From assembly GCA_030430155.1 (NCBI GenBank), contig JAUIFV010000024.1, forward strand, positions 1 through 38,655: a stretch of 38,655 nucleotides of DNA, in the 5' to 3' direction. The DNA is from Gammaproteobacteria bacterium (GTDB lineage Bacteria; Pseudomonadota; Gammaproteobacteria; Xanthomonadales; SZUA-5). The translations under genes were made by a program, and so were the position numbers. The notes under the pieces are model-generated. The model saw only the letters and a list, made by a program, of their open reading frames with translations. It was not told the DNA's origin and did not search any database. Positions 2,973 through 16,657 of the stretch are shown one piece after another (positions within the stretch are counted from its first letter, which is position 1; each line of letters starts with the position of its first letter).

Positions 2973-3503
2973 CTAGCTTGCGTCGGTGAGTGCTTCGCCC
3001 AACCTGGCCCCGTCAATCGGCGCCAGGCCTTGATCGGCCACTGCGGGCAACAGCTGCTGCAGGCTACCCAGGCCGGGAATCTGCAGATCAGGAGTGATCT
3101 CGGCCAGAGGAACCAGCACGAAGGCGCGCTCGCCCATGCGCGGATGCGGTATCTGCAGGCGCGGCAGCGCCAACTGCGCATCGCCGTATAGCAGCAGGTC
3201 CATATCCAGCGTGCGTGGATGATTGCGCTGGCCGGCCTGTCTGATCCGCCCGGCCTCGGTCTCGATGGCCAGCAGCGCGTCCAGCAGCTGCTCAGCGTCG
3301 CCGTCCCAGCACAGGCTGGCCACCGCGTTGAGGTAGTCAGACTGTTTGGGACCGCCGATGGGCGCGCTGCGATACAGCGAGGAACCGACGAACTCGCTGA
3401 CCTGCGGCAGGGCGATCAGCTTCGCTGCGGCCTGGCGCAGCTGCTGTTCGGGCTGAGCAAGATTGGCGCCGAATGCCACATAGGCGCGCTGCGCAGAACT
3501 CAT
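2973..3503 (-). CDS. folK: 2-amino-4-hydroxy-6-hydroxymethyldihydropteridine pyrophosphokinase
   Basis: HPPK transfers pyrophosphate from ATP to 6-hydroxymethyl-dihydropterin in cytoplasmic folate synthesis. The 176-residue protein has the typical order: YVAFGANL near the N-terminus, SSLYRSAPIGGPKQSDYLN (substrate loop), then HPRTLDMDLLLYGD with the metal-binding DxD, and PHPRMGERAFVLVPLAEI. The ATG overlaps the pcnB stop by 4 nt (ATGA), so translation is probably coupled to pcnB. pcnB-folK adjacency is common in gammaproteobacteria. Confidence 0.95.
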   Translation of the reverse strand: MSSAQRAYVAFGANLAQPEQQLRQAAAKLIALPQVSEFVGSSLYRSAPIGGPKQSDYLNAVASLCWDGDAEQLLDALLAIETEAGRIRQAGQRNHPRTLDMDLLLYGDAQLALPRLQIPHPRMGERAFVLVPLAEITPDLQIPGLGSLQQLLPAVADQGLAPIDGARLGEALTDAS

Positions 3504-4849
3504 TCGCTGGCGGCGGTCGCGCCGCCCTTGGGTTTGCGCCGACGACGCCGACGGCGGCGCTTGGGTGCGGCGGGGTCGGCGTCGGCGCCGTCGTGATCAC
3601 TGTCAGCGCCAGCAGCGGCGCCGCGGCCGGGCTGGAACAATCGATCGAAATCGGCCCCTTCAACCTCTTGCGCAAGGGTCCAGCGCTCCGCTTGCGCAGC
3701 CAGCTCGGGCTCGGTGGCCGCGCGCAGCAGCAGAAAATCGTAGGCCGCGCGAAAGCGTGGGTGACGCAGCAGTCGCCTGGCCCTGCCCACCCCCATCGCC
3801 GCGAATCGCGGCTGCAGCAGCCAGATCTCCTTGGCCACTGAACTGAAGCGCCGTGGCAGAGCGACCCGCTTGGCGGTGTCGGCGAAGACCCGCTCTGCGG
3901 CCTCCGCCGCGGCATGTATCCAGTCTTCGACGCCGAGTTCGGCGTGCCGCTGCATACGCTTTTGATAGTTCGGCCAGAGCAGCGCGGCAAACAGAAAGGC
4001 CGGGGTCACCGGCTTGTCCACCGCGACCCTGGCATCGGTACTGGCCAGGGCAGCCAGGATCAGCTCACGGTGAGCGGCGCTGACCTTGGCCAGCCCCGGG
4101 AACAGGTGGCGCAGCAGATCCAGCTCCTCGAGCTTTGCATAGCTGAGCACCGCATAGCCGCCCATGAACAGCTTCAGCGACTCATCAAACAGCCGCGCCG
4201 GGGGAATGTCGTCCAGCAGCGGGGCCAGTTCGGCCATCGGCTGCAGGGTTGCTGGCGCGATGTCGAACTTGAGCTTGGCCGCCAGCCGCGCGGCGCGCAG
4301 CATGCGCACCGGATCCTCGCGATAGCGCACTTCCGGATCGCCGATCAGCTGCATCTGGCGGGCCTTCAGATCCTCCAGACCGCCGGCGAAATCGAGCACG
4401 CTGTAGTCGGCGATGGAGTAGTACAGCGCGTTGACGGTGAAGTCGCGACGCAGCGCGTCCTCCTCCAGCGTACCGAAGACGTTGTCACGCAGGATCCGAC
4501 CGTCCTCAACCTGGCGGTGCTCGCTGTCTTCGTCGACCCCATCGCTGCCGCCCCTGAAGGTGGTTACTTCGATGATCTCGGCGCCAAAGCGCACGTGGGC
4601 GATGCGGAAGCGGCGACCGATCAAGCGGCAGCGCCTGAACACCTGCTGGACCTGCTCTGGCGTGGCGTTGGTGGCCACGTCGAAGTCCTTGGGCGCGCCG
4701 CCCAGCAGCAGATCGCGCACCGCGCCGCCAACCAAATAGCTTTCATAGCCCGCTTCATGCAGGCCATAGAGAACCCTCACTGCGGCACTGCTCATTCCTT
4801 TGCGAGACACGCTGTGCTGGTCTCGGGCGATCCGCTTGCACTCACTCAT
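3500..4849 (-). CDS. pcnB: Poly(A) polymerase I
   Basis: Template-independent polynucleotide adenylyltransferase that tags RNA 3' ends for decay. The 449-residue protein begins with the PcnB-like RDQHSVSRKG and LYGLHEAGYESYLVGGAVRD. It has the nucleotidyltransferase motif KDFDVATNATPEQV with catalytic Asp55/Asp57 and RRFRIAHVRFG. The tRNA-NTase/PcnB RNA-binding region RYREDPVRMLRAARLAAKL follows. The C-terminus is a very basic, low-complexity Arg/Lys tail ending PKGGATAASE, which fits RNA binding. ATG at 4849 keeps the full N-terminal homology. It is the first gene of pcnB-folK-panB and is divergent from tRNA-Glu. The N-terminal sequence separates it from a CCA-adding enzyme. Confidence 0.94.
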   Translation of the reverse strand: MSECKRIARDQHSVSRKGMSSAAVRVLYGLHEAGYESYLVGGAVRDLLLGGAPKDFDVATNATPEQVQQVFRRCRLIGRRFRIAHVRFGAEIIEVTTFRGGSDGVDEDSEHRQVEDGRILRDNVFGTLEEDALRRDFTVNALYYSIADYSVLDFAGGLEDLKARQMQLIGDPEVRYREDPVRMLRAARLAAKLKFDIAPATLQPMAELAPLLDDIPPARLFDESLKLFMGGYAVLSYAKLEELDLLRHLFPGLAKVSAAHRELILAALASTDARVAVDKPVTPAFLFAALLWPNYQKRMQRHAELGVEDWIHAAAEAAERVFADTAKRVALPRRFSSVAKEIWLLQPRFAAMGVGRARRLLRHPRFRAAYDFLLLRAATEPELAAQAERWTLAQEVEGADFDRLFQPGRGAAAGADSDHDGADADPAAPKRRRRRRRRKPKGGATAASE

Positions 4850-11410: not shown

Positions 11411-11683
11411 ATGAAATCCATAATGTTGGCGGCGGCGGTCCTGCTGCTCCAGGGTACGGCTCAGGCCGAGCAGATCCGCAGCGTCAAACCGGAGTTTCAT
11501 CCGCTGTCCGCCGACCCCGCCGCGCCCAAGCGACGCCTGTCTGGCGCCCACAAGCAGGCCGGGACAGAGGCGCCGATACGCTTCGAAACCCGCGTTGAGC
11601 TGGACGAGCAGGGCCAGCCGCATCTGCATTGCGATCAGGTTCACCATGCTGAGCAGGCGCACGCGGAGCACCGTCATGACTAA
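11411..11683 (+). CDS. Small secreted His-rich protein
   Basis: A 90-residue protein starting at ATG 11411, chosen because GGGAG lies 7 nt upstream and the N-terminus is then a clean signal peptide (MKSIMLAAAVLLLQGTAQA, cleavage after residue 19 or so). The mature part is polar, about 70 residues, and ends in a histidine-rich tail (HLHCDQVHHAEQAHAEHRHD) with one Cys, which could bind metal. Its last 8 nt overlap the start of the metalloprotease gene, so the two are probably co-translated. No family is recognised. A role as a metal-loading factor, chaperone or inhibitor of the protease is only a guess. Confidence 0.7.
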   Translation: MKSIMLAAAVLLLQGTAQAEQIRSVKPEFHPLSADPAAPKRRLSGAHKQAGTEAPIRFETRVELDEQGQPHLHCDQVHHAEQAHAEHRHD

Positions 11684-14036
11684 GTACCGGATCATGACCG
11701 GCGTGATCTGTGCCGCGACCCTGCTGATCTTGCTCAGCCCGACTATCCAGGCCGCCGAAACGGTGCGTCTGGAAGACGAGATCAGCGTCAGCTTTACGAT
11801 TCCGGCCAACACCTACAGCAACGCCTTCTTCTTCGACTTGCCGGCCGGGGTGCGCAAATTCCGCCTGGAATTGGACGGCACCCCGACCTTCAACACCGAT
11901 CTGGATCTGTTTGTGCGTTATGGCGAGCCCTTCCCGGACGCCAACAGCTATGGGCTGGCACCGGCCAACATCGAGCGCAGCTTCGAATGGCTCGCCGATT
12001 TGTCCCACTATCAATCGATCAGCTTCGGCAACGAGGAATTCATCGCTGTTTCCGAACACGCCGTGCGTCCGCCTCAGGCAGGCCGTTGGCACGCCGCGAT
12101 AGTCAATTTCTCTTCGGTGCCCGTGGATGCGGTCCTGCGCCTGGACGTGCGCGCCGATGAACCGCCGGCGGCGGCGACCTTCAGCGTGCGCTTCGACCTG
12201 CCCTGTACGCCAGACGACGGGCCCACCTGCGAATGCGACCTGAGCGGCTGGAATGATCCGGCGCCGCCGTTTCCTGCACCCGGCAACACCGGCGCCACAC
12301 TGGGTGAGCAGCGGCGCATTGCTCTGCAGGAGGCAACCCAGCGCATCGCCGCCAATTTCCGCACCGAGGCGCCTATCGTGATTCGCGCCTGCTGGGCTGA
12401 TCTGGAGGCGGACGCAACCAGCGCCGTGCTGGCCCAAGCCGGCACCGAAGGGATATTCATCAACGACACCAGCCTGTTCGTCAACAGCGGCGGCGGTCCG
12501 CGCCCTGGCCGTCGTCAGGCCTTCCTGCCCGAATCCCACGCCTGGTATGCGGCAGCGCCCACCAGCAAGTCGGGCGGCACCAGTTTCTGCCGCGTCTCCG
12601 GCGGCCCCTGTTCATCGCGGGTGGACGTCACTGCCACCTTCAACAGCCGCATCGACACACCGGTCGGCCTGGGCGCGGTGAGCTATTACTACGGCCTGGA
12701 TCCGGCACCGGCCGGCACCGTCGACTTCATTGGCGTGGCCATGCACGAAATCACCCACGGGCTGGGCTTCATCAGCTTTGTCAGTCTGGGCAGCGGCAGC
12801 ACCCCGGCCGGAGCGGAGTTTCGCGGTAGAGATGACATCTACGAGCGGCAGATCCTGGTCGACAATCAGAACAACCCGCGGCTGCTGTCACGGTTGACCG
12901 ACAGCGGGCGGGCCAGCGCGCTGACCTCGGGCAATGCCTTGCAGTGGATCAGCGCCGAGGCGGTGGCCTCGCAGTTCAACGACCCGCGGCCGGGCGAGGT
13001 GGGGATACGCATGTTCGCACCCAACCCGATCCGCCCCGGCTCCAGCCTGTCGCATCTGGATTCCTTCTATCGCGGCGAGCTGATGGTCCCCAGCGCCAAC
13101 GCCCAGGCCGGTGCCAGACAGCTGTTCCTTGCTGCACCTATGCTCAATGCGGTGGGCTGGGATCCCGCGCCCAAGCCCTTCCCCGAGGCCGTGATTCCCT
13201 ACAGCAGTCAGTGGTACGACCGCGACCGGGTTGGCCACGGCATCGACTTCCAGCGTGTGTTTACCGATGCCAACGGCTATGACATCTATAGCCTGCTGTT
13301 CTACAGCTACGATCAAAACGGTGACCCGGAGTGGTTCCTGGCCATCGGCCCGGTGGTCGACGGGGTGTTCCTCGCCGACACCAACGAGTTCGACTCCAGC
13401 CTGGTGGCCTACCTCTACCAGCAGGGCCGTTTCCCACCGCAGCGCGCCGACAGCAGCCGCCGTGGACAGGTGCGGATGGACTTCAATCAGGCCATCGACA
13501 GCTTCGCCTGCGCCGACGGCACGACCCGGGAAGACGGGCTGCCGCTGGCCGTGTTCAGCTGGTCCATCGACGGCGCCAGCGGCAGCTGGTGCATGGAGCC
13601 GCTGATCGGCGCCGCCGAGCGCGGCGGGGTCGATCTCACCGGCACCTGGTATGCCGGTAGCGACGATCAGGGCTGGGGCGCGTCCATCGCCAGCGCGCAG
13701 CGCGCCGCCGGCGAGCTGTTCTTCGCCTTGATCTACTACCCTGATGCCAACGGCGCCGGGCGCTGGGCATTCGCCCTCACCGAGGACTACCAGCCCGGCA
13801 GCACGCTACCGCTGCTGCAGCGCCGCGGCTACTGCCGCACCTGCACCGCAACCGCGCTGGTGGACACGCCGGTCGGCACCCTCACTCCGGCGTTGATCAA
13901 CGCCACCCAGGAGGACCTGAGCACCGGCAACCGGATCGGCGTCGACGTCACCTACGGCAGCGCCCCGGGCGGTAGCTTCATCCGAGCGAATGACACGCCC
14001 TACACCCTGCTCAGCGCGCCGGCGCAGTCGCGCTGA
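11676..14036 (+). CDS. Secreted HExxH metalloprotease with PPC-like and two C-terminal Trp-rich domains
   Basis: From ATG 11676 the product has 786 residues. A signal peptide (1-26, TLLILLSPTIQA) is followed by a PPC-like beta domain (~30-170; FFFDLPAGVRKFRLELDG, TDLDLFVRYG). A catalytic region comes next, with HEITHGLGFIS (His357, Glu358, His361) and a later SLSHLDSFYRGELMVPS. HExxHxxG resembles metzincins, but the expected third ligand three residues after the Gly is Ser367 rather than His or Asp; His in SHLD may substitute. Residues ~507-644 and ~651-786 are two related domains (SQWYDRDRVGHGIDFQRV; GTWYAGSDDQGWGASIAS), each with a tyrosine-rich FYSYDxxGxPEW-like strand. It ends just before a hairpin. 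Probably extracellular; substrate unknown. Confidence 0.8.
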   Translation: MTKYRIMTGVICAATLLILLSPTIQAAETVRLEDEISVSFTIPANTYSNAFFFDLPAGVRKFRLELDGTPTFNTDLDLFVRYGEPFPDANSYGLAPANIERSFEWLADLSHYQSISFGNEEFIAVSEHAVRPPQAGRWHAAIVNFSSVPVDAVLRLDVRADEPPAAATFSVRFDLPCTPDDGPTCECDLSGWNDPAPPFPAPGNTGATLGEQRRIALQEATQRIAANFRTEAPIVIRACWADLEADATSAVLAQAGTEGIFINDTSLFVNSGGGPRPGRRQAFLPESHAWYAAAPTSKSGGTSFCRVSGGPCSSRVDVTATFNSRIDTPVGLGAVSYYYGLDPAPAGTVDFIGVAMHEITHGLGFISFVSLGSGSTPAGAEFRGRDDIYERQILVDNQNNPRLLSRLTDSGRASALTSGNALQWISAEAVASQFNDPRPGEVGIRMFAPNPIRPGSSLSHLDSFYRGELMVPSANAQAGARQLFLAAPMLNAVGWDPAPKPFPEAVIPYSSQWYDRDRVGHGIDFQRVFTDANGYDIYSLLFYSYDQNGDPEWFLAIGPVVDGVFLADTNEFDSSLVAYLYQQGRFPPQRADSSRRGQVRMDFNQAIDSFACADGTTREDGLPLAVFSWSIDGASGSWCMEPLIGAAERGGVDLTGTWYAGSDDQGWGASIASAQRAAGELFFALIYYPDANGAGRWAFALTEDYQPGSTLPLLQRRGYCRTCTATALVDTPVGTLTPALINATQEDLSTGNRIGVDVTYGSAPGGSFIRANDTPYTLLSAPAQSR

Positions 14037-14263: not shown

Positions 14264-15271
14264 TCAGCCGAGGTGGTCGATGATGGCTTGCCCAAAGCTA
14301 TGCGTAGACCCATTGCCACCCAGGTCAGGCGTCAGCCGATCCTTGGCCTGGTAGGTGGTGCGGATGGCCTCGCGGATGCGCTGGGCGGTATCGATCTTGC
14401 CCAGGTGGTCGAGCATCATGCAGGCTGCCAACAGCACGGCAGTGGGGTTGGCCACGCCCTGCCCGGCGATGTCCGGCGCCGAGCCGTGCACCGCTTCGAA
14501 AATCGCGGCATTGGCGCCGATGTTGGCACCCGGGGCAACGCCCAAGCCGCCGACCAGACCGGCTACCAGGTCGGAAACGATATCGCCGAATAGATTGGTA
14601 GTGATCAGCATATCGAAGCGCGACGGGTCCATCACCAGCTGCATGCAGGCGTTGTCGACGATCAGCTCGCTGATCTGCAGATCATCGAACTCCTTGCCGA
14701 CTTCGCGGGCCACGCGCAAGAACAGCCCTGAGGTGGTCTTGAGGATATTCGCCTTGTGAATGATCGCCACCCGCTTGCGACCCAACCGACGGGCCAGCTC
14801 GTAACCGTGGCGGACGATACGCTCTGAGCCGCGGCGGGTGATCTGCATGATCGACTGGGCCACTTCGCCGTCGGCGGACAGGGTCTGCCCTTCGCTGCGA
14901 TAGGCACCCTCGGTGTTCTCACGCACGGTGATCAGGTCGACGTCGCTGTAGCGCGCCTTGGTGTTCGGCAGCGAATGCGCAGGGCGTACGTTGGCGTAGA
15001 GGTCAAAGCGCTTGCGCAGTTCGACATTGATAGAGGAAAAGCCCTCGCCCACTGGTGTCGTCAGCGGTCCTTTTAGCGCCACGCGATGTTTGCCAATGGC
15101 CTCCAGCGTGTCTGCCGGCAGCAACTCACCACAGCTGTTGTAGGCAACCAGTCCAGCGTCGACGAATTCGTAGCTCAGGTTGGCGCCGGCGGCATCCATG
15201 ACGCGCAGGCTGGCGTCGACGATCTCCGGACCGATACCGTCACCTCGGATGACTACTATCTTCTCACTCAT
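14264..15271 (-). CDS. NAD-dependent isocitrate dehydrogenase
   Basis: Beta-decarboxylating dehydrogenase of the isocitrate/isopropylmalate family, 335 residues. It has VIRGDGIGPEIV at the N-terminus, KGPLTTPVGEGFSSINVELR (substrate loop with Ser and Arg), DLITVRENTEGAYRSEGQ, and the catalytic region HKANILKTTSGLF with the conserved Lys. The metal site is in DMLITTNLFGDIVSDLVAGL and the cofactor loop in EAVHGSAPDIAGQGVANPTA. The NTEGAYRSEG form and short length fit the NAD-linked IDH of xanthomonads and mitochondria better than LeuB or NADP-Icd. ATG 15271 has AAGGA about 10 nt upstream. No operon partner; it converges with the metalloprotease gene. Confidence 0.85.
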   Translation of the reverse strand: MSEKIVVIRGDGIGPEIVDASLRVMDAAGANLSYEFVDAGLVAYNSCGELLPADTLEAIGKHRVALKGPLTTPVGEGFSSINVELRKRFDLYANVRPAHSLPNTKARYSDVDLITVRENTEGAYRSEGQTLSADGEVAQSIMQITRRGSERIVRHGYELARRLGRKRVAIIHKANILKTTSGLFLRVAREVGKEFDDLQISELIVDNACMQLVMDPSRFDMLITTNLFGDIVSDLVAGLVGGLGVAPGANIGANAAIFEAVHGSAPDIAGQGVANPTAVLLAACMMLDHLGKIDTAQRIREAIRTTYQAKDRLTPDLGGNGSTHSFGQAIIDHLG

Positions 15272-15571
15272 CGGGCTGTTTCCTTATCTGGTTGAATCCC
15301 GGCAGCGGCGTCGATGCAGAGCCATCAAAGCAGTGCTTGCGCACCGCTGGGCTTGCGTAATGACGGCGAAAGCCGGATGCTTGCGCGCGTTCGCGCGGCT
15401 GATGTCAGCCGGCAAGGATGCATGAAAGCGGGATGAATTCAAATCCCGGCGCTGACTGCGCACTGAATGTGCTGCTTTTGGGGAACCCTTTGCGGTGCCG
15501 ACAGTCACCCCTTTCGGGTTGATTTAACGCTCGCGTTGTATCCTGCGGGCGAGTTTGGATCATCGATACCA
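15272..15571. other. 300-nt intergenic region with REP-like palindromes
   Basis: This gap separates the divergent isocitrate dehydrogenase and secreted-protein genes. Between about 15325 and 15425 it has repeated GCTTGCG motifs and short palindromes (CGCGCG around a TT near 15380; GGCTG-ATGT-CAGCC; GCCGGC), resembling a REP cluster. The secreted-protein gene must take its promoter from the last ~100 nt, but no convincing -35/-10 pair was found: TTGATT at 15519 and TATCCT at 15539 are only 14 nt apart. No gene is supported here. Confidence 0.4.
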
Positions 15572-16657
15572 ATGTACAGAGCCTTTGCCATCGCTATCGT
15601 CCTGCTGCTAGGCGTGAGTTCCGGCGCGTCCGCGTCTGCGCCCTGGCATCTGCTCAGCACCGAGCCGGCGACCCCGGCGCCCGGGGAGAGCTTTCTAATA
15701 GCCGTGGACGGCACCTGGCCGAACGGTTGTCCGTTTGAGGTTTCTCCAGTCAGCCGTGAGGGCAACATGCTCAAACTGCGGTTGACTGAACAGCCTGGGG
15801 TTTGCACCGAAGCGCTGCGCCCATATCAGCTGCGGATTGACCCGGCTCCTACGCTGGCCCGCGGGCTGGATGCCGGCAGCTACCAGATTGAGCTCGAGGC
15901 TGAGGACCGTAGCGGTGTACGCACCATCGGCTTTGGCGTTTTTGACGTCGCCCCGGCCGATCGCGTGGTTCGGCCAGAAGCCGGATTCTGGGTCGCCGAT
16001 CCGAGCGGGCGCTATGCCGATAGCGGTAGCGGCGTGGGTTTCAACCTGGAGCGCCAGGACGACGCTCTGGCGATGATCGCCTACTTCTATGACCACAGCG
16101 GCGAACCGCGCTGGTACTTCAGTGCTGGCGATGCCCGCCGCACCGGCTACGCTGGCGATTTGCTCGAGATACGCGGCGGTCAGGCTGTATTCCAGCCCTA
16201 TCAAGCGCCGCGCGACATGCGCCCCTTCGGCCGCATTGATCTGAGCTTCAGCGATCGTGGCCATGCGGTGGCCTGGTTCAGCCAGCCGCAGGACGAGGGA
16301 ATTCTCGCCGAGCTGCGCGTCATGCCCATTTCGCTGGTGCGCTTTGGTTTCAAGGCCGGAGCCACCGCGCCGGCCCTGAGCGGACGCTGGATGCTGATGG
16401 AGCTGGACGGCGTGGACGGCAGCGGCAGGGTCATCGATTTGCAGCCCGACGTCAGCGCCGCGCCGCTGCAGCTGCGACTGGAGGATCAACGACTGGCCGT
16501 CAGTCTGGACTGCGGCATCGTCACCAGCAATCTCGATCAGCCGCCTGCGCTATGCGTGCTGGCGACCGAGCAGGGGCAGGTAAGCCTCGAGCACAACGGC
16601 ATACATGAGCTGCACTCGGCCGACGGCCAGACCCGGCTCATCCGTATCGACCGCTGA
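15572..16657 (+). CDS. Secreted protein with the Trp-rich domain shared with the metalloprotease
   Basis: ATG 15572 gives 361 residues with a signal peptide (MYRAFAIAIVLLLGVSSGASA). The frame is open further upstream, but only this start places the signal at the N-terminus. Residues ~25-135 look like an Ig-like beta domain (PGESFLIAVDGTWPNGCPF, RPYQLRIDPAP, SYQIELEAEDRSG). Residues ~145-275 carry the Trp-rich domain (EAGFWVADPSGRYADSGSGV, then YFYDHSGEPRWYFSAG), clearly related in pattern to the two C-terminal domains of the metalloprotease 1.5 kb upstream. A tail with two Cys follows. No catalytic motif was seen. It is probably an extracellular or periplasmic binding protein; function unknown. 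Confidence 0.72.
   Translation: MYRAFAIAIVLLLGVSSGASASAPWHLLSTEPATPAPGESFLIAVDGTWPNGCPFEVSPVSREGNMLKLRLTEQPGVCTEALRPYQLRIDPAPTLARGLDAGSYQIELEAEDRSGVRTIGFGVFDVAPADRVVRPEAGFWVADPSGRYADSGSGVGFNLERQDDALAMIAYFYDHSGEPRWYFSAGDARRTGYAGDLLEIRGGQAVFQPYQAPRDMRPFGRIDLSFSDRGHAVAWFSQPQDEGILAELRVMPISLVRFGFKAGATAPALSGRWMLMELDGVDGSGRVIDLQPDVSAAPLQLRLEDQRLAVSLDCGIVTSNLDQPPALCVLATEQGQVSLEHNGIHELHSADGQTRLIRIDR

What the first reader, a model, noticed from the sequence alone, without database searches (positions are those of the whole stretch)
11411..14036. Small His-rich secreted protein overlapping a HEITH metalloprotease gene
Two exported products, one 90 residues with a His/Cys tail and one a zinc-protease-like enzyme, overlap by 8 nt and so are likely made in a fixed ratio. 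A small partner could deliver metal, act as a propeptide-like inhibitor or help export. I know of no described pair of this kind.
Basis: partly seen in the sequence, partly recalled or inferred. Interest (0 to 1): 0.55.

Follow-up and report, generated by a model that had tools for sequence, protein, structure and literature searches.

The report
Detached pro-domain upstream of its protease
A tiny exported protein encoded just upstream of a zinc protease appears to be the enzyme's own pro-domain made as a separate gene, probably keeping the protease off through one metal-binding residue, an arrangement seen across several bacterial phyla.

Summary
In detail: a 90-residue exported protein (11411-11683) overlaps by 8 nt a 786-residue exported HEITH protease (11676-14036). 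The pair is conserved. All 31 window-type protease loci examined in the order carry a small secreted partner directly upstream, and so do all 39 shorter relatives; [quoted passage not shown] The shared core is not the His tail but a short G-x5-Cys motif. In 59 separate partners the residue is Cys (46) or, where Cys is absent, His at the same place (13 of 13). The longer partners match NCBIfam NF047450 ("post-PEP-CTERM-1"); the window's partner does not reach it. The window's catalytic domain models confidently (pLDDT 92) and matches MMP/karilysin structures (Z 9); third zinc ligand and Met-turn look leishmanolysin-like. Best reading: a detached pro-domain acting in trans, with Cys74 capping the catalytic zinc (cysteine switch, sometimes a histidine). 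Pairing, fusion and Cys/His exchange are shown; binding, inhibition and zinc contact are inferred. Known protease-inhibitor pairs (potempins, Spi) are similar in kind; my searches found nothing in print on this one.

The parts
11411..11683 (+). small exported partner, 90 aa; proposed detached pro-domain
   Evidence: homologues upstream of the protease in relatives
11411..11467 (+). signal peptide of the small protein (19 residues, by eye; no lipobox Cys)
   Evidence: sequence
11597..11632 (+). conserved core ELDEQGQPHLHC: invariant Gly68 and Cys74, the proposed zinc-capping residue
   Evidence: G68 invariant in 26 of 26; C or H; coordinate of Cys74
11633..11680 (+). His-rich tail DQVHHAEQAHAEHRHD, recurrent but not conserved
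11676..11683 (+). 8-nt overlap of the two genes
   Evidence: 4-nt overlap in 16 of 26 loci
11676..14036 (+). exported metzincin-like protease, 786 aa
11676..11753 (+). signal peptide of the protease (by eye)
11754..12170 (+). N-terminal domain of window-type proteases; no Pfam match, nature unknown
12171..13190 (+). catalytic domain (predicted pLDDT 91.9, pTM 0.92; best structural match karilysin, Z 9.4)
12744..12758 (+). HEITH: proposed zinc ligands His357 and His361, general base Glu358
   Evidence: H, E, H invariant in 27 of 27
13053..13055 (+). His460 of GSSLSH, proposed third zinc ligand
   Evidence: invariant; in register with leishmanolysin 1lml, (E 0.084)
13083..13085 (+). Met470, proposed Met-turn
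   Evidence: invariant; register
13188..14033 (+). C-terminal domain (about residues 505-783), shared with many otherwise different proteins of the order; absent from shorter proteases that still have a partner

Best explanation
The 90-residue protein is the pro-domain of the protease made from its own gene. Both are exported separately (each has a signal peptide), meet in the periplasm, and the small protein's short hairpin lies on the active site, with Cys74 (His in some relatives) as fourth ligand of the catalytic zinc, so that the enzyme is latent, and perhaps helped to fold, until the partner is displaced or degraded. Shown: conserved pairing, in-frame fusions in relatives, purifying selection, Cys/His exchange at one position, metzincin-like catalytic domain. 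Inferred: binding, inhibition, contact of Cys74 with zinc, place and trigger of activation.
For: Pairing: a small secreted partner lies directly upstream at all 31 window-type loci examined: 26 complete genes; L103, L104, L105; L028 truncated by a contig end; G004 split over two contigs. The same holds at 39 of 39 shorter-protease loci fetched: 33 separate genes (two cut by a contig end), 5 in-frame fusions, 1 frameshifted fusion. Fusion: 7 of 24 fused proteins match both NF047450 and the NF038122 protease model in one polypeptide. Independent check with a curated model: 3 of 3 NF047450 matches in 398 genomes of the phylum sit directly upstream of a HExxHxxG protease. In 74 non-duplicate loci of named genomes, a profile trained on other loci hits at E<0.01 in 39, always 566-671 nt before the HExxH codon; it hits 2 more where my HExxH pattern failed, and nowhere else in those loci. 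Residue: 46 Cys and 13 His in 59 separate partners; His at G+6 in 13 of 13 Cys-less ones, in families f5, f2 and f12, plus L091 in f8. Protease: the listed structural matches are all MMP-type. Conserved protease Cys mostly fall into pairs, which leaves no spare Cys for a disulfide to the partner.
Against: No complex was modelled and the models give no coordinates, so the zinc contact is untested. The similarity of the window's partner to the longer, fusion-type pro-domains covers only 35 columns (hhalign probability 94.9%, E 4e-8), and the window's protein itself does not match NF047450. Proteases above the NF038122 cut-off (HEIGHALGF type) had no such partner at 7 of 7 loci where a frame could be read, so the pairing belongs to a sister group, not to all NF038122 proteins. 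Conservation of a Cys/His could also serve folding or metal transfer. The sequence identity of small partners is low.
Confidence: 0.62

Rival explanations
1. Steric chaperone: the small protein helps the protease fold or be exported and is not an inhibitor; the Cys/His shapes a fold or a transient metal site.
For: Co-linear upstream gene, in-frame fusions and translational overlap fit a folding pro-domain equally well. RhpC, a small partner of the protease RhpP, helps translocation as well as suppressing harm (PMC6490944, abstract).
Against: A chaperone role does not by itself explain why the one conserved reactive residue is Cys or His and nothing else.
Confidence: 0.22
2. Metal delivery: the His/Cys tail loads zinc into the protease.
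For: His is enriched in the tails (6.3% against 2.3% before the motif); some tails are very His-rich.
Against: 22 of 59 tails have no His and only 14 of 59 have three or more; the 5 fused forms continue into the protease and have no such tail.
Confidence: 0.07
3. An independent inhibitor of the potempin type, unrelated to any pro-domain, protecting the periplasm.
For: A gene directly upstream of the protease is how potempins are arranged (PMC7296668, passages).
Against: In-frame fusions of homologues as N-terminal segments of homologous proteases make a pro-domain origin more likely; no lipobox in the window's protein.
Confidence: 0.07
4. Two neighbouring exported proteins with no functional link.
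For: None beyond absence of an assay.
Against: Pairing at 31 of 31 and 39 of 39 loci, and fusions.
Confidence: 0.02

Closest known systems
NCBIfam NF047450 post-PEP-CTERM-1 domain
   Same: 25 of 36 longer partners and fused segments match it; in fused proteins it lies N-terminal to the protease.
   Different: The window's 90-aa protein is shorter and does not match. The model's name states no function, and a search of the name found no paper.
NCBIfam NF038122 metallo_LGF protease
   Same: The window's protease matches it over the HExxH region (40 bits).
   Different: Below the cut-off of 80 bits; members above the cut-off that I could read lack the partner.
Cysteine-switch zymogens: MMPs, promirolysin; aspartate switch in karilysin and astacin (PMC6949598, abstract and passages)
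   Same: Metzincin-type catalytic domain, a single pro-segment residue proposed to cap the zinc, variation of the capping residue between relatives.
   Different: There the pro-segment is part of the same chain; here it is a separate exported protein in the window and most relatives, and the alternative residue is His, not Asp.
Potempins and KLIKK proteases of Tannerella forsythia (PMC7296668, passages)
   Same: Small exported protein from the gene directly upstream, specific for the downstream protease.
   Different: Potempins are lipoproteins; descent from a pro-domain is not stated in what I read. No sequence comparison was made.
Spi/SpeB and staphostatins/staphopains (PMC3462683, passages)
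   Same: Small inhibitor co-transcribed with its protease.
   Different: Cysteine proteases, inhibitors thought to act in the cytoplasm.
Leishmanolysin, 1lml
   Same: HExxHxLGF plus a distant GSxxSH and ELMxP in the same order.
   Different: E 0.084 only; Pfam Peptidase_M8 reached 0.086 in 1 of 24 fused relatives.

Membership tests
NF047450 post-PEP-CTERM-1 (for the small protein) | score above the curated cut-off of 28 bits | tested here: not met
   P0001: no NF047450 match at E<=1; 4 of 26 window-type partners match weakly, best 0.0029
NF047450 post-PEP-CTERM-1 (for the small protein) | profile similarity of the C-terminal core | tested here: met
   hhalign A1 vs A4: probability 94.9%, E 4e-8, 35 columns
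NF038122 metallo_LGF (for the protease) | score above the curated cut-off of 80 bits | tested here: not met
   40 bits, E 4.6e-10
metzincin clan | metzincin fold of the catalytic domain | tested here: met
   window domain model pLDDT 91.9, pTM 0.92; karilysin 2xs4 Z 9.4, rmsd 3.8, 142 aligned; all 50 listed rows are MMP-type. Foldseek alone gave no E<=0.001
metzincin clan | HExxHxxGxxH/D with third ligand six residues after the second His | tested here: not met
   Ser367 at that place; invariant His460 proposed instead
metzincin clan | Met-turn | tested here: inconclusive
   M470 invariant, in register with 1lml; geometry not seen
leishmanolysin (M8) | third His far downstream, then Met-turn (the M8 features are recalled) | tested here: inconclusive
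   same order in 1lml, E 0.084
cysteine-switch zymogen | pro-segment in the same chain | tested here: not met
   separate gene in the window; met in fused relatives
cysteine-switch zymogen | pro-segment residue ligates the catalytic zinc | not testable with these tools
   no complex, no coordinates; only the Cys/His exchange supports it
potempin-type protease inhibitor | gene directly upstream of the target protease | tested here: met
potempin-type protease inhibitor | lipoprotein | tested here: not met
   no Cys in or just after the signal peptide (by eye)
potempin-type protease inhibitor | inhibits the neighbouring protease | not testable with these tools
   needs an assay

The most novel reading that the evidence does not exclude
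A whole branch of bacterial metzincins (Xanthomonadales, Burkholderiales, Acidobacteria, Eisenbacteria, Krumholzibacteria, Chloroflexi) is controlled by one pro-domain that occurs in cis in some lineages and in trans in others, and whose zinc-capping residue is Cys or His: a trans-acting cysteine/histidine switch, explaining the unassigned NF047450 domain and reduced in the window to little more than the switch hairpin.
Probability: 0.45. Interest if true: 0.75.

Novelty: new variant of a known kind. Interest (0 to 1): 0.6.

Why it matters
It gives a testable function to a named but unassigned domain (NF047450), shows how a protease pro-domain can exist as a separate gene or as a fusion within one family, and offers a natural series (Cys or His, cis or trans) for testing what a zinc-capping switch needs. 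If the trans pro-domain inhibits, it is also a small, genetically encoded, specific inhibitor of a leishmanolysin-like protease.

Tried and rejected
Pfam found nothing for either window protein. The HPE1-like NCBIfam hit of the small protein (E 0.035) covers residues 1-27, mostly the signal peptide, and was set aside. L004 (E 0.008 hit) is a frame antisense to a transporter-like gene and was rejected. The hit at G001:C743 (E 1.7e-4) lies in a 486-aa frame with no HExxH protease near it and is taken as chance; the other weak hits (E 1e-3 to 1e-2) that have no fetched protease next to them were not followed. An interchain disulfide between partner and protease was considered and set aside, since conserved protease Cys come in pairs and His replaces Cys in the partner; in L016, L019 and L022 one Cys of a pair is displaced in the alignment, which I did not resolve. 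Foldseek alone gave no significant match for either model; the MMP matches come from VIA-align's second look. The fused-protein model had only pLDDT 73.6, pTM 0.61, and its searches say nothing about the pro-domain part. A PDB profile search with the pro-domain alignment gave only chance-like hits. No phage record holds the protease. L023's start is a CTG chosen by script and is probably wrong. Junction distances depend on start codons picked by script.

Paper searches: 'NF038122' 0 papers, 'post-PEP-CTERM' 0, 'PEP-CTERM' with metalloprotease and propeptide 0, 'histidine switch' with metalloprotease, propeptide and zinc 0, cysteine switch with in trans, leishmanolysin with cysteine switch, separate gene with propeptide and operon: nothing on this pair seen in the listings. 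The library lacks most subscription papers.

Full report
Observation.

Is the small frame a gene? In the nearest genome with a match (G001) it is 46% identical, dN 0.48 and dS 0.88; the protease there is 76% identical, dN 0.17 and dS 1.02. Closer pairs of partner genes give dN/dS of about 0.1 (L029/L030) and 0.2 (L073/L077). It is under purifying selection but evolves faster than the protease.

Is the pair conserved? Protease relatives occur in 84 of 151 genomes of the order (many matches are to the C-terminal domain only). For window-type proteases I examined 31 loci and found a small secreted partner directly upstream at all: 26 complete genes, three more where a longer stretch was fetched (L103, L104, L105), one cut by a contig end but with its motif visible (L028), and one where the start of the protease and the partner lie on another contig (G004). 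In 16 of 26 the genes overlap by 4 nt. A profile of the 26 partners, run over the 151 genomes, gave 31 matches at E<=1e-4, and by the coordinates every one lies beside a protease match, or in G007 within a frameshifted fusion; only five of the 31 were outside the training set.

Shorter proteases. Many relatives lack the window protein's N- and C-terminal domains. I fetched 39 such loci. All 39 have a partner: 33 as a separate upstream gene (L097 and L100 cut by a contig end), 5 fused in frame as the N-terminal segment (L064, L067, L075, L078, L086), and one fusion broken by a frameshift (L085). These were recognised by me in ORF lists, not by an automatic rule. The separate partners are longer than the window's. 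25 of 36 aligned ones (31 separate, 5 fused) match NF047450, 'post-PEP-CTERM-1', and 7 of 24 fused proteins match NF047450 and NF038122 in one chain. Profile-profile comparison joins the window-type partners to the longer ones over 35 columns, with probability 94.9% and E 4e-8.

Named genomes. A scan with the fused subfamily returned 80 loci: Lysobacterales, Acidobacteria including Blastocatellia, Burkholderiales (Duganella, Rugamonas, Ideonella, Pelomonas), Eisenbacteria, Krumholzibacteria, Chloroflexi, Nevskia and others. A motif profile trained on 58 partners from the other loci hit 39 of 74 non-duplicates at E<0.01, all 566-671 nt before the HExxH codon, two more (L144, L150) where my HExxH pattern failed, and nothing else in those loci on either strand. 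The 33 misses include most fused Acidobacteria, in which the motif can be seen by eye (whose output was cut); I did not count those. With the curated model and no training of mine, NF047450 matched 3 places in 398 genomes of the phylum, and all 3 are directly upstream of a HExxHxxG protease (G037 = L081; G438 twice = L189, L190; search).

Limits of the pairing. Proteases that pass the NF038122 cut-off (HEIGHALGF type, several ending in a PEP-CTERM-like anchor) had no such partner at 7 of 7 loci where a protease frame was read (L191-L197; three more regions, L198-L200, gave no frame, and L201, below the cut-off, had none). In that 398-genome sample the two curated models did not hit the same genomes, because the NF038122 model scores this branch weakly (40 bits for the window). 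So the pair marks a sister group, not all NF038122-like proteases.

The conserved residue. The partners share little: one Gly is invariant in the 26 window-type ones. Six residues after it (five in 4 cases) stands a Cys in 46 of 59 separate partners; the other 13 have no mature Cys and all have His at Gly+6. His occurs in families f5, f2 and f12, and in L091 of f8, so probably more than one exchange happened; I made no tree. Cys and His are both zinc ligands, and a disulfide is unlikely because the conserved protease Cys are paired.

The protease. HExxH, a distant GSxxSH and LMxP are conserved, with His357, Glu358, His361, His460 and Met470 invariant. The window's catalytic domain was predicted at pLDDT 91.9, pTM 0.92; VIA-align put karilysin first (Z 9.4, rmsd 3.8, 142 residues) and all 50 listed rows are MMP-type enzymes, while Foldseek alone had no significant match. 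Residue 367, where metzincins have the third His or Asp, is Ser. The profile's best PDB sequence match is leishmanolysin, with HExxHxLGF, GSxxSH and ELMxP in the same order, but only at E 0.084. I read it as a leishmanolysin-like metzincin.

Mechanism. [quoted passage not shown] The known precedents are cysteine switches in MMPs and promirolysin and aspartate switches in astacin and karilysin (PMC6949598, abstract and passages). Here it would act in trans. Not shown: binding, inhibition, the zinc contact, the site of action, how the enzyme is released. A folding role could coexist.

Relation to known systems. Small exported inhibitors encoded directly before their protease are known (potempins; PMC7296668, passages), as are co-transcribed inhibitors of cysteine proteases (PMC3462683, passages) and the RhpP/RhpC pair (PMC6490944, abstract). 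What I have not found in print, in the searches, is a metzincin pro-domain as a separate gene or a Cys/His exchange at the switch. Hence 'new variant of a known kind'.

Noticed in passing
15467-16657 +: A neighbouring exported protein seems to share the repeat type of the protease's C-terminal domain; the pairwise match is weak (25% over 85 residues, E 5e-4).
   Followed up: partly
14264-15271 -: An isocitrate/isopropylmalate dehydrogenase-like gene lies next to the pair; very similar genes show up near the pair in relatives (for example L013, L015, L017, L022 in the ORF lists). The name is recalled, not from a search.
   Followed up: no
L168, L171, L189 upstream of the partner: A PEP-CTERM-like anchor sequence (VPEP/LPEP...) precedes the partner frame, which may explain the name post-PEP-CTERM-1.
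   Followed up: no
L085 (G007:C138) 3159-4106: A pro-domain/protease fusion broken by a frameshift (pseudogene or sequencing error).
   Followed up: no
L090, 2159-2524: A partner with CH at the motif (Cys at Gly+5, His at Gly+6), as if between the two states.
   Followed up: no
protease residues 720 and 723 (GYCRTC): A CxxC in the C-terminal domain, present in 19 of 29 aligned proteases; both Cys are lost together in the other 10.
   Followed up: no
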